Source: Streptomyces hygroscopicus
GTDB taxonomy: Bacteria > Actinomycetota > Actinomycetes > Streptomycetales > Streptomycetaceae
Direction: 5' to 3'
Assembly (NCBI RefSeq): GCF_026168105.1
Contig: NZ_LBMW01000018.1
Span: 62,001 to 126,000, forward strand
DNA: 64,000 nt
Shown here piece by piece: positions 17,669-20,119 of the stretch. The notes under the pieces are model-generated. The model did not search any database, was not told the DNA's origin, and saw only the letters and a program-made list of their open reading frames with translations. The translations under genes were made by a program, and so were the position numbers. Each line of letters begins with the position of its first letter. Position 1 is the stretch's first letter.

Positions 17669-18475
17669 TCACTTCTCGCGGCCGGACGTGTCGTCGAAGG
17701 CAGCCCGCACCGTGTCGAACCGCTTCATGCGTTCCAGCACGGTGTCGGCGGTCGGCCGCGCCATCTCGTCCACGATCCGTCCGTCCGCCAGGAAGAGCAC
17801 CAGATCGGAGTGGGCCGCCGCGCCCGGATCGTGGGTGACCATCACGACGGTCTGCCCCAGGTCGTCGACCGCCTGGCGCAGGAAACCGAGGACCTCCAGC
17901 CCCGACCGGGAGTCGAGGTTGCCCGTGGGCTCGTCCGCGAAGATCAGCTCGGGGCGGGAGGCGAGTGCCCGGGCGCAGGCGACGCGCTGTTGCTGCCCGC
18001 CGGACAACTGGGCCGGCCGGTGGCCGAGCCGGTCCCGCAGGCCGAGTGTGTCGATCACCTGGTCCACCCACTCCCGGTCGGGCCTCTGGCCCGCGATGTC
18101 CATCGGGAGCGTGATGTTCTCGGCCGCGCTCAGTGTGGGGATCAGATTGAACGACTGGAACATGAAACCGATGCGGTCCCGGCGCAGCCGGGTCAGCTCA
18201 CGATCCTTCAGGCCAGTGATCTCGGTGTCGCCGAGCCACACCTGACCCGCCGAGACCGTGTCGAGTCCCGCCAGGCAGTGCATCAGCGTGGACTTCCCCG
18301 AGCCCGAGGGACCCATGACCGCGGTGAAGCGGCCGCGCGTGATGTCCACGTCGACCGCGTCGAGGGCGAGGACCGTCGTCTCGCCCGAGCCGTACGCCTT
18401 CGTCAGTCCCCGGGCGCGGGCGGCCGTCCCGTCCGGCTCCGCGCGGCCCCGGGCGTGCTCCGCAGCAGTGGACAA
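17669..18475 (-). CDS. ABC transporter ATP-binding protein (LolD/MacB type)
   Basis: The 268-residue ATPase partner of the FtsX-like permease downstream. Walker A GPSGSGKST, Q-loop FMFQSFNLIPTLSAAENI, signature LSGGQQQR, Walker B ELIFADEPTGNLDS and the H-loop VMVTHDP are all intact. The start is placed at TTG 18475, with GAGGAGG 5-6 nt upstream; the frame stays open to an ATG at 18652 but that stretch is a low-complexity purine-rich tract without homology. Substrate unknown. Confidence 0.9.
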   Translation of the reverse strand: MSTAAEHARGRAEPDGTAARARGLTKAYGSGETTVLALDAVDVDITRGRFTAVMGPSGSGKSTLMHCLAGLDTVSAGQVWLGDTEITGLKDRELTRLRRDRIGFMFQSFNLIPTLSAAENITLPMDIAGQRPDREWVDQVIDTLGLRDRLGHRPAQLSGGQQQRVACARALASRPELIFADEPTGNLDSRSGLEVLGFLRQAVDDLGQTVVMVTHDPGAAAHSDLVLFLADGRIVDEMARPTADTVLERMKRFDTVRAAFDDTSGREK

Positions 18476-18533
18476 GACCGCCTCCTCGGTCGTGGACGCC
18501 GTGACGTCGTGGACGTTCCGCCGTCCTCGTCTG

Positions 18534-18623
18534 GGTCTTCCAGGTCTTCCCTTTTCCCGTCTTCCCGCGCTTTCCGGTCTTGCCCTGCCGTCGTTCCCCG
18601 TCCCATTCCCTTTTCCCTGTTCC
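18534..18623. repeat. Polypyrimidine/polypurine tract with GTCTTCC repeats
   Basis: On the plus strand this ~90-bp stretch is mostly C and T with few G and A, and lower GC than its surroundings. GTCTTCC recurs at 18535, 18544 and 18559, with GTCTT at 18577. It lies 60-150 nt upstream of the ABC ATPase start on the minus strand, where the transcript would be a long A/G leader. Confidence 0.6.
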
Positions 18624-18754
18624 GGCCGAGCGTAGTGTGATGCGGAGCACACCCGGTATCCCTCGGGAGTCCAGGCGCGTCTCCGCCACAGGTCGTGCCC
18701 CGGATGCCGGTGTAAGGGGCACTCTCCACCCCGTGGTGGAGCCAGGCTGCCCCC

Positions 18755-18790
18755 TTGCCGACGCTAGCGCCACGGCGCTAGCGTCGGGGT
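18755..18790 (+). promoter_or_regulatory. Leaderless promoter embedded in a 30-bp palindromic operator
   Basis: Arms CCGACGCTAGCGCC (18758-18771) and GGCGCTAGCGTCGG (18774-18787) flank a 2-nt centre; 28 of 30 positions are symmetrical. Each arm also holds the 8-bp palindrome CGCTAGCG. TTGCCG (18755-18760) and TAGCGT (18779-18784), 18 nt apart, fit -35 and -10 boxes. The ATG at 18791 is 7 nt past the -10 box, so transcription would start at the start codon. The operator covers the whole core promoter and leaves no room for a ribosome binding site. Confidence 0.7.
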
Positions 18791-19054
18791 ATGGCGAAGA
18801 CCCAGCTGAACGTGAGGGTGGACGAGGACACCGCCCGAGCCGCCCGCGAACGAGCCCTGGAGCGCGGCATGAGCGTCAACCGCTACATCGAAGAGCTGGT
18901 CAAGCAGGACGCGGGGGAGGCGGGTCACACGTTCGTGGAGGCAGCCGCCGACTTCATGAAGCAGTACGAGTCCGTCTTCGCCGAGGAGTTCGGTGCCACC
19001 CGCGAGGGCCGGGGCGAGGGCTCGGGAGAGCACCGGAGCGAAGGTCGTCGCTGA
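18791..19054 (+). CDS. ribbon-helix-helix (Arc-type) antitoxin-like protein
   Basis: An 87-residue protein. Residues 1-40 (TQLNVRVDEDTARAARERAL, then MSVNRYIEELVKQ) form a ribbon-helix-helix DNA-binding domain, followed by a helical segment (VEAAADFMKQYESVFAEEFG) and a charged Gly/Glu/Arg tail. RHH dimers bind palindromic operators like the one overlapping its own promoter, so autoregulation is very likely. The transcript should be leaderless. The next gene (Fic-like) starts 3 nt after its stop, so the two are a toxin-antitoxin-style pair. Confidence 0.85.
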   Translation: MAKTQLNVRVDEDTARAARERALERGMSVNRYIEELVKQDAGEAGHTFVEAAADFMKQYESVFAEEFGATREGRGEGSGEHRSEGRR

Positions 19055-19057
19055 GCG

Positions 19058-19432
19058 TTGAGCAACCTAAGGATCGACCTCGCCTGGCTGCTGATGGTCG
19101 CCGAACAGAAGACACCCGGAGATCCCCAGGTCACCGACTGGGGAGCGCTCGTCGCCGCGGTCAGCCGGCACGACGCGGAGATATTCGGCGTCCCCGTCTA
19201 CGACACCCCGCACGCCCGCGCCGCGGCCCTCCTCCAGCTTCTGCTGCACGTTCCCGCGCTGGAGCGCTCCAACGCGCTGTTCGCGTCCGCGGTCGCCTAC
19301 GCCTATCTGGTCGCCAGCGGTGTCAAGGTCGTCACCTCCCCGGAGCAGGTGCGCGACCTGGCCCGGCTGGTCAAGGGCGGCGAGGCCTCCGTGAGTGACA
19401 TCGCGCGGGAGCTGCGGCAGTGGAGTCTGTGA
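19058..19432 (+). CDS. Fic/Doc-family-like protein with degenerate active-site motif
   Basis: A 124-residue Doc-type protein, the second gene of the RHH pair, starting at TTG 19058. Residues ~1-90 follow the Doc fold pattern (WLLMVAEQ, then VAAVSRHDAEIFGVPVYDTPHARAAALLQLLLH). The Fic motif HxFxxGNKR should follow, but here it reads HVPALERSNALFA (residues 64-76): a His is kept, the acidic residue appears as Glu69, and GNKR is lost. Known Doc kinases or AMPylators need those residues, so this copy is likely inactive as a Fic enzyme or has changed function. Its stop abuts the opposite gene's stop. Confidence 0.75.
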   Translation: MSNLRIDLAWLLMVAEQKTPGDPQVTDWGALVAAVSRHDAEIFGVPVYDTPHARAAALLQLLLHVPALERSNALFASAVAYAYLVASGVKVVTSPEQVRDLARLVKGGEASVSDIARELRQWSL

Positions 19433-20119
19433 CTACTCCCCGCCGCCGGGCCGCCGGGCGGTGCCCAGCACGCAGTACGACGTCGGCAGACGCGGCCCCT
19501 TCTCCGGCATCAACAGCCGCCGGTAGGGGCCCAGTTCGAATCCGGCCGTGCGCAGGGCCGCCACCGGGTCCCGGGACAGGTGACAGCCCCCGTTGAGCGG
19601 CGGCCACACCGTGCGGTCCAGGGCGCGCTGGGCGTACCGCATCGCGGGCCCGCCGCCCGCGCCGTGCTCGTAGAACCGCAGCGTACCGCCGGGCCGCAGT
19701 ACCCGTCGCAGCTCACCGAGCGTGCGCGTGAGGTCCCGCACGCTGCAGAGCACCAGGGAGACGACCGCCGCGTCGAAGGCCTCGCTCTTGACCGGCAGCG
19801 CCTCCGCCGCGCCCGGCACCACGTCCACCGGGACGTCGGCGCGCAGGGCTGCCTCGACCGCCAAATGCCGCAGCAGCCGCTCGGGTTCGATCGCGACGAC
19901 CTCCGAGACCGTGCGCGGGTAGTGGGCGAAGTTCAGACCGTTGCCCGCGCCGATCTCGATCACCCGGCCGGACAGCCCGGCCAGGAGCCGGTCCCGGACG
20001 GCAGCCATGCCGATGCGTGTCTCGGCGGCGACGGAGATCCGGGCGTAGTAGCGGGCGAAGAGCGGATGGTGCACGGAGTCCCGCGACACCGTGTGGGGTC
20101 GGACGGACCGCAGCGGCAT
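19433..20119 (-). CDS. class I SAM-dependent methyltransferase
   Basis: A 228-residue methyltransferase. SAM-binding motif I is VIEIGAGNGLNFAHYP (residues ~65-80), then VVAIEPERLLR (motif II) and EAFDAAVVSLVLCSV (motif IV), with LRVLRPGGTLRFYEH after. It resembles UbiE/Methyltransf_11 proteins of unknown substrate. ATG 20119 follows GGGAGGTGCTC. Its stop codon is directly next to the convergent Fic-like gene's stop, with no spacer. Confidence 0.88.
   Translation of the reverse strand: MPLRSVRPHTVSRDSVHHPLFARYYARISVAAETRIGMAAVRDRLLAGLSGRVIEIGAGNGLNFAHYPRTVSEVVAIEPERLLRHLAVEAALRADVPVDVVPGAAEALPVKSEAFDAAVVSLVLCSVRDLTRTLGELRRVLRPGGTLRFYEHGAGGGPAMRYAQRALDRTVWPPLNGGCHLSRDPVAALRTAGFELGPYRRLLMPEKGPRLPTSYCVLGTARRPGGGE

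What the first reader, a model, noticed from the sequence alone, without database searches (positions are those of the whole stretch)
18755..19432. Leaderless RHH/Fic-like pair controlled by a palindrome that swallows its whole promoter
Seen: 14-bp perfect arms around 2 nt (18758-18787), each arm holding CGCTAGCG; TTGCCG-18-TAGCGT lies inside; ATG is 7 nt past the -10 box, without ribosome binding site. The first gene is a ribbon-helix-helix protein, the second (3 nt later) is Fic/Doc-like. Inference: the RHH dimer-of-dimers binds the nested palindromes and fully shuts a leaderless transcript. A conserved, silent-by-default two-gene switch of this form would be new to me.
Basis: partly seen in the sequence, partly recalled or inferred. 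Interest (0 to 1): 0.72.

Follow-up and report, generated by a model that had tools for sequence, protein, structure and literature searches.

The report
Streptomyces antitoxin with dead Doc partner
The finding is a toxin-antitoxin-like gene pair conserved across many Streptomyces, probably self-regulated through two identical DNA boxes laid over its promoter; that layout is familiar for such pairs, but the 'toxin' lacks the residues its relatives use for catalysis.

Summary
But the 14-bp perfect arms occur only in this genome (1 of 103 promoters). What is conserved is GCTAGC-N8-GCTAGC: box 2 in 103 of 103, box 1 exact in 99 of 103, start codon 13-15 nt after the start of box 2. Box pair and gene pair go together in 181 Streptomyces genomes (120/3/3/55), and the boxes change with the RHH DNA-reading strand, which aligns with Arc repressor's Q-N-R triad. 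Autoregulation by the RHH protein is thus well supported, not shown. Leaderlessness fits but was not measured, and is not new in kind: 32 of 37 M. tuberculosis toxin-antitoxin pairs with a primary start are leaderless; RefSeq already names an orthologous pair antitoxin/fic-family toxin. The unexpected part is gene 2: a confident Doc fold (Z 16.5 to P1 Doc) without Doc's catalytic His66 in all 101 orthologue-type loci and 40 paralogue loci examined, yet under purifying selection. I read it as an autoregulated RHH/pseudo-Doc module.

The parts
18755..18760 (+). -35-like TTGCCG
   Evidence: Sequence. Over 100 promoters aligned on box 2, T at -36 is 78%, T at -35 92%, G at -34 75%; lost in several divergent orthologues.
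18763..18768 (+). operator box 1, GCTAGC (-28)
   Evidence: Exact in 99 of 103 promoters; the other four differ by one base.
18777..18782 (+). operator box 2, GCTAGC (-14), overlapping the -10
   Evidence: 103 of 103 promoters.
18779..18784 (+). -10 element TAGCGT (TANNNT)
   Evidence: TAGCGT 54, TAGCTT 48, TAGCAT 1 of 103. Not found by the E. coli-type promoter scan.
18758..18787 (.). 14-bp perfect inverted repeat around the two boxes
   Evidence: full-length arms only in this genome (1 of 103).
18791..19054 (+). RHH antitoxin-like repressor (P0001, 87 aa), predicted leaderless
   Evidence: Family profile hits Arc (E 4.9e-5) and, weakly, MazE7 and Rv0298 antitoxins (E 0.004-0.006); Pfam HicB 21.2 bits, cut-off 21; median dN/dS 0.11 over 80 loci.
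19058..19432 (+). pseudo-Doc: Doc-fold protein without the Fic catalytic motif (P0002, 124 aa, TTG start)
   Evidence: AF2 pLDDT 90.7; Doc 3dd7_A Z 16.5, rmsd 2.1 over 118; Pro66 in place of Doc His66; median dN/dS 0.17 over 80 loci.

Best explanation
A chromosomal type-II toxin-antitoxin-like operon. A dimer of the RHH protein sits on each GCTAGC box (inferred: Q5, N7 and R9 read TAG, as Gln9, Asn11 and Arg13 do in Arc). Box 2 overlaps the -10 and ends 8 nt before the start codon; box 1 lies in the -35/-10 spacer; occupancy would exclude RNA polymerase. When free RHH falls, RNA starts at or next to the start codon and RHH plus Doc-like protein are made together (inferred). The fixed 14-bp spacing in the 103 promoters compared suggests a rigid assembly. 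I propose that the Doc-like partner, held by the conserved C-terminal part of the RHH protein, bridges or tunes the two dimers (co-repression, as RelE does with RelB, and as recalled for Doc with Phd), not that it acts as a classical Fic kinase or AMPylator, because the catalytic His and, in this protein, the motif's D, K and R are gone. Shown: sequences, conservation, co-variation, fold prediction, motif loss. Inferred: binding, repression, leaderless start, complex, lack of toxicity.
For: Boxes nearly invariant in position and sequence, 103 promoters. Gene pair and exact box pair co-occur: 120/3/3/55 of 181 genomes; the three gene-without-exact-box genomes keep a 1-mismatch pair at the locus, and one of the three box-without-gene genomes (G102) has the RHH gene at a contig end. 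Strand-box co-variation over 76 loci: QxNxR 26 of 30 have GCTAGC, all others 0 of 46. QxNxR aligns with Arc's Q-N-R, which contact its TAGA box (PMC12645479, passages). Doc fold. His66 absent in 101 of 101 orthologue-type and 40 of 40 paralogue loci. Purifying selection on both genes.
Against: No binding, transcription-start or toxicity data. The E. coli-type promoter scan finds nothing here. 14 bp is not a whole helical turn, so direct Arc-type dimer contact is doubtful. The read-through model (pTM 0.71) cannot prove an interface, gave no coordinates, and the RHH N-terminus with the start of the strand (residues 1-7) is under pLDDT 50. Strand classes were drawn after seeing the sequences, and many loci are close relatives: without the 20 orthologues and L139, GCTAGC stands before 5 of 9 QxNxR genes against 0 of 46. 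The four QINVR loci carry TAGC/GCTA but not GCTAGC. A TANNNT at -18..-5 is missing in 10 of the 76. The orthologue/paralogue set excludes by construction three Streptomyces loci that keep a DGNKR motif (L228-L230). A degenerate Fic protein, C. fetus Fic2, is still toxic (it keeps and needs its His).
Confidence: 0.68

Rival explanations
1. An active toxin with changed chemistry: the Doc fold keeps a pocket but uses other residues (as AvrB, a Fic-like effector with glycosyl transfer), so the pair is an ordinary toxin-antitoxin system.
For: Strong purifying selection; nearly invariant residues at the old motif (P66, L68, E69, N72 in 44 rows); AvrB entries align at Z 8.1-8.6, a level the tool calls possibly only a common arrangement, with UDP and rhamnosylated peptide in their titles; relatives on 98 of 72,556 plasmid records suit an addiction role; RefSeq calls it a toxin component.
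Against: In the motif region only L68 and N72 stay fixed across the 44 rows, N72 also across the loci; two paralogue genes (L150, L151) have no RHH gene in the fetched stretch by profile or by eye, odd for a potent toxin.
Confidence: 0.25
2. A pseudo-enzyme that damps active Doc/Fic toxins of the same cell or of mobile elements, a decoy or antidote role.
For: DGNKR-type Docs with RHH-like partners exist in some Streptomyces (L228-L230); several paralogues per genome.
Against: Those partners have different RHH proteins and boxes; the own genome shows no PF02661 match above the cut-off, only two weak ones (E 0.003 and 0.005), so no clear client.
Confidence: 0.08
3. The boxes are the site of another regulator, and the RHH protein acts elsewhere.
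For: No direct binding data.
Against: The exact pair occurs once in the own genome and once or twice in the genomes that have it, goes with the gene pair and co-varies with the RHH strand.
Confidence: 0.04

Closest known systems
Phd-Doc of phage P1
   Same: Doc fold (3dd7_A Z 16.5, rmsd 2.1 over 118 residues, 22% identity); two-gene operon, antitoxin first, autoregulated (both recalled for P1).
   Different: Antitoxin is RHH, not Phd; catalytic His66 and Asp70, Lys73, Arg74 replaced by Pro, Arg, Ala, Leu in P0002 (alignment); promoter predicted leaderless.
Canonical actinobacterial RHH-Doc pairs (HxLxDGNKR)
   Same: RHH-like gene first, Doc second; paired boxes near the -10 and the start codon (GGTATC/GATACC before 15 of 16 MTLRLT-type genes).
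   Different: They keep the DGNKR-like motif (14 of the 20 fetched also the His); different reading strand and boxes.
Leaderless TA operons of M. tuberculosis
   Same: Leaderless first gene of a TA pair (32 of 37 pairs with a primary start; PMC3898074, passages).
   Different: Here the start is predicted, not mapped.
Arc repressor of phage P22
   Same: RHH with a Q-N-R reading triad (aligned); binds a TAG-containing box as a dimer of dimers (PMC12645479, passages).
   Different: Two boxes 14 bp apart; a Doc-like partner gene, which Arc lacks (recalled).
RelBE
   Same: RHH antitoxin with the toxin as co-repressor (PMC2812701, start of abstract in search listing).
   Different: RelE is an mRNA-cleaving toxin, not a Doc fold.

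Membership tests
Fic/Doc | Doc/Fic fold | tested here: met
   Foldseek 3dd7_A E 2.4e-5, TM 0.80; Z 16.5; family profile hits only Doc entries below E 1e-3 in the PDB.
Fic/Doc | Catalytic motif HxFx[DE]GNxxR | tested here: not met
   His66 in 0 of 101 orthologue-type and 0 of 40 paralogue loci; 14 of 20 canonical-like relatives have it (groups split by the motif itself).
Fic/Doc | Pfam Fic (PF02661) above cut-off | tested here: not met
   PF02661 not among the matches of any of 44 members at E<=1; own genome 0 above cut-off.
RHH (MetJ/Arc) repressor | RHH domain in the N-terminus | tested here: met
   Profile hits Arc E 4.9e-5, MazE7 0.004, Rv0298 0.0055; HicB 21.2 bits vs cut-off 21.
Type II toxin-antitoxin system | Antitoxin gene first, closely followed by a toxin-family gene | tested here: met
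   3-nt gap in the window; in 79 orthologous loci the gap to the query-aligned start was 3-7 nt in 61, range -4 to 253.
Type II toxin-antitoxin system | Autoregulation by the antitoxin | tested here: inconclusive
   Conserved boxes and co-variation; no binding assay.
Type II toxin-antitoxin system | Toxin stops growth; antitoxin rescues | not testable with these tools
   Catalytic motif loss argues against classical Fic chemistry.
Leaderless transcript | 5' end within a few nt of the start codon | tested here: inconclusive
   -10 at -12..-7 in 100 of 103 (one base off in 3) and no Shine-Dalgarno tetramer at -18..-4 in 103 of 103; no mapped 5' end.

The most novel reading that the evidence does not exclude
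A large Streptomyces family of toxin-antitoxin operons in which the toxin has become a catalytically dead, strongly conserved scaffold. The pair is then a self-contained autoregulatory switch: the pseudo-Doc works only as bridge or co-repressor on a rigid 14-bp two-box promoter, and RHH strand and box have diversified together across paralogues, giving insulated parallel switches in one genome.
Probability: 0.35. Interest if true: 0.62.

Novelty: new variant of a known kind. Interest (0 to 1): 0.45.

Why it matters
A close orthologue is present in 123 of the 181 Streptomyces genomes compared, in the 80 closest loci usually beside the same ABC-transporter and methyltransferase genes, and is annotated as a Fic toxin component although the Fic motif is missing. 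If the partner is inactive, the annotation of many such 'toxins' is misleading, and a testable question arises: what keeps a dead toxin under selection. The strand-box pairs form a natural data set for an RHH recognition code.

Tried and rejected
Palindrome as a terminator or attenuator: the terminator scan of 18400-19700 does not list it (the same scan lists no promoter there either). Palindrome as a site of a global regulator: single exact site in the genome; around the 1-mismatch site at C74:60451 I saw, by eye, no RHH-like start at the right distance. Phage origin: no match in 50,697 phage records. Defence system: no PADLOC match for the two proteins. Earlier literature: searches for leaderless+ribbon-helix-helix+Streptomyces, fic+doc+Streptomyces+coelicolor, death on curing+Streptomyces, SCO1248-SCO1250 (locus numbers guessed from memory) and 'fic family toxin-antitoxin'+Streptomyces showed no paper on this pair in their listings (the last two returned none). 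The papers listed there were not opened, except PMC2701414 (passages on Doc, Fic and RHH). Only open-licence papers are held and supplements could not be read, so published S. coelicolor start-site tables were not checked. A second, weak RHH hit in the own genome (C76, E 0.012) was only glanced at. An alignment for the read-through chain misplaced N-termini of Doc-only rows and was replaced with trimmed rows. The read-through model gave no coordinates, so no interface could be inspected; Foldseek on it gave Doc at E 1.4e-3. Rows dropped: L234 (start finder missed it; read by eye, box 1 ACTAGC, box 2 GCTAGC); L040 was missed by the regex, read, and is. Not: L150, L151, L196, L213 (same locus as L083), L222, L231. 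The 40 paralogue loci count L083 twice (as L213), so 39 are distinct. In the 2x2 the 120 site positions were not each checked; G068's exact site is elsewhere and its own locus has one mismatch; the sites of G076 and G190 are not before an RHH gene; G096, whose gene is split by a stop, was counted as without the gene.

Full report
Observation. The window lies in an 8.65-Mb genome (G000) whose close relatives are Streptomyces. At 18758-18787 there is a perfect 14-nt inverted repeat with a 2-nt centre. Inside lie two copies of GCTAGC, at 18763-18768 and 18777-18782, 14 bp apart. TTGCCG (18755-18760) and TAGCGT (18779-18784) are 18 nt apart and the ATG is at 18791; the TTG of the -35 lies outside the palindrome. 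The RHH ORF ends at 19054 and the next ORF runs 19058-19432 from TTG.

Chance. Three dyads in the window have perfect arms of 14 or more with a loop up to 20 nt; 20 shuffles had none. CTAG is rare (9 in the window against 207 CATG). GCTAGC-N8-GCTAGC occurs in the whole genome once exactly and once more with one mismatch; the reversed control pattern gave 2 exact hits and 69 with one mismatch allowed. An E. coli-type promoter scan found nothing in 18400-19700.

Conservation. A scan of genome contigs with the second protein gave 423 relatives among 533 candidate stretches; the best 80, all titled Streptomyces, were kept. To these I added 20 divergent orthologues (71-81% identity), one 58% relative of another genus, two further loci and the window: 104 rows, 103 counted. 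Box 2 is GCTAGC in 103 of 103; box 1 in 99 of 103, the others one base off. The box pair starts at -28/-14 in 100 and one base off in 3. The -10 is TAGCGT in 54, TAGCTT in 48 and TAGCAT in 1. The -35 is weaker (T at -35 92%, G at -34 75%) and is lost in several divergent orthologues. No GGAG, GAGG, AGGA or AAGG lies at -18..-4 in any of the 103; a GAGG-like run at -5..-2 is common (75-86% per base). Start codons: 85 ATG, 18 GTG.

Presence and absence. In 181 Streptomyces genomes (transcribed into), a close orthologue of gene 2 (E about 1e-50 or lower) and an exact box pair go together: 120 with both, 3 gene only, 3 box only, 55 neither (Fisher p 7e-39; relatedness not corrected). The three gene-only genomes (G041, G059, G145) have a one-mismatch pair at the locus. 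Of the box-only genomes, G102 carries the RHH gene and its boxes at a contig end, while the sites of G076 and G190 are not before an RHH gene. G068 was counted as 'both' through a site elsewhere; its own locus has ACTAGC for box 1. I did not check the position of each of the 120 sites.

Co-variation. Paralogous and canonical RHH-Doc pairs allow a test. Over 76 loci with a recognised RHH start, genes with a QxNxR strand have GCTAGC within 40 nt upstream in 26 of 30, and all others in 0 of 46. Without the 20 orthologues and L139 it is 5 of 9 against 0 of 46; the four misses (QINVR) carry TAGC/GCTA boxes. MTLRLT-type genes have GGTATC or GATACC in 15 of 16 (others 2 of 60); LNVRF-type have GGTACC in 8 of 9 (others 1 of 67); VTIRL-type have GTACAG or CTGTAC in 4 of 5 (others 0 of 71). 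The five REIRIEIS-type loci have GCTA, with one obvious box only. Eleven loci fit no class, and a TANNNT at -18..-5 is present in 66 of 76. The classes were defined after seeing the sequences. L219 is instructive: its strand is QLGAR rather than QLNVR, and its promoter has GGTAACAGCTGTTACC. The profile of the RHH family hits Arc repressor best (E 4.9e-5) and aligns Q, N and R of the strand with Arc's; in Arc, Gln9, Asn11 and Arg13 contact the TAGA box and two dimers bind one operator (PMC12645479, passages only).

Gene 2. No Pfam or NCBIfam model reached its cut-off for the protein; TIGR01550 (DOC_P1) appears weakly for 7 of 44 members (best E 0.004). A profile of 44 members finds only Doc entries in the PDB below E 1e-3 (1.9e-6 to 3e-4). 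The AF2 model (pLDDT 90.7, pTM 0.87) matches P1 Doc (Foldseek E 2.4e-5; Z 16.5, rmsd 2.1 over 118 residues), far above the best row that is not Doc (Z 8.8). In the alignment Doc His66 falls on Pro66, Asp70 on Arg70, Lys73 on Ala73, Arg74 on Leu74; Asn72 is kept. In one search none of 101 orthologue-type loci (80 + 20 + 1) and none of 40 paralogue loci (39 distinct) has His66, and all 141 rows have Asn72; Pro66 stands in 100 of 101 and 26 of 40, Arg66 in 12 of 40; Asp70 and Arg74 occur in 2 of 40 paralogues each and in no orthologue-type locus. By contrast, of 20 relatives with a DGNKR-like motif (17 from other families of the class, 3 from Streptomyces, L228-L230; the group was chosen by that motif) 14 have the His and 20 the Arg. 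So Streptomyces also holds Doc relatives of the canonical type. Both genes are under purifying selection against the window copy (median dN/dS 0.17 for gene 2 and 0.11 for the RHH gene, 80 loci each, own NG86 script). Two paralogues, L150 and L151, show no RHH gene in the stretch fetched, by profile or by eye. The RHH profile also misses 18 of the 20 canonical-like loci, L216 and L222; there, RHH-like ORFs can be read by eye before L216 and all canonical-like ones but L196, which has only a tail-like piece.

Context. In the 74 of 80 loci held at full length, the ABC ATPase is next door in 65, the methyltransferase in 69, BioD in 51. So the pair is mostly an inherited chromosomal locus; one copy with the same neighbours lies on a 578-kb linear plasmid. 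Relatives lie on 98 of 72,556 plasmid records and on none of 50,697 phage records. RefSeq annotation names that plasmid pair 'antitoxin' and 'fic family toxin-antitoxin system, toxin component'; other relatives are 'hypothetical protein'.

Mechanism. Box 2 overlaps the -10 and box 1 lies in the spacer, so RHH dimers on the boxes should block polymerase. With the -10 at -12..-7 the start of RNA is expected at or next to the start codon. In S. coelicolor 21% of primary starts are leaderless and the -10 is TANNNT (PMC4895711, passages); in M. tuberculosis 32 of 37 TA pairs with a primary start are leaderless (PMC3898074, passages). The 14-bp spacing is constant in the promoters compared but is not a whole turn, so a third party may hold the dimers; the Doc-like protein is the natural candidate, as RelE is a co-repressor with RelB (PMC2812701, start of abstract in search listing). 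A chain reading through the TGA was modelled (pLDDT 79.6, pTM 0.71). Its RHH helix 42-67 averages 81 and 91 over residues 41-50 and 51-60, but 71 over 61-70; residues 1-7, the start of the strand, and 69-89 are under 50. It is compatible with the helix binding the Doc-like part but does not prove it. Degeneration does not always mean harmlessness: C. fetus Fic2 is toxic with a degenerate motif, though it keeps and needs its His (PMC5651007, passages), and AvrB entries, Z 8.1-8.6, are titled as bound to UDP and a rhamnosylated peptide.

Verdict. The partner's loss of the Fic catalytic set across a large, selected family is the feature worth following.

Noticed in passing
window 18712-18720, upstream of the boxes: A GTAAGGG[AG]C motif stands at variable distance (-194 to -59) upstream of the RHH start in 44 of 80 orthologous loci; perhaps part of the divergent ABC-transporter promoter.
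   Followed up: partly
L151 (upstream of 804) and L150: Pseudo-Doc genes with no RHH gene found in the fetched stretch; L151 follows DNA that reads, by eye, like Rhs/YD repeats and ends in a short tail-like remnant.
   Followed up: partly
L161 (NZ_CP139046.1 12815-19180): The whole neighbourhood (ABC transporter, RHH/Doc-like pair, methyltransferase, bioD, bioA) is on a 578-kb linear plasmid.
   Followed up: no
L153, L154, L156, L157: A related pair in another family of the order, with a QQLNAR strand, has the two boxes only 9 bp apart (L153 with GATAGC for box 1), so spacing differs between families that share the box.
   Followed up: partly
L231 (G096): The orthologous second gene is split by an in-frame TAG in one of the genomes searched.
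   Followed up: no
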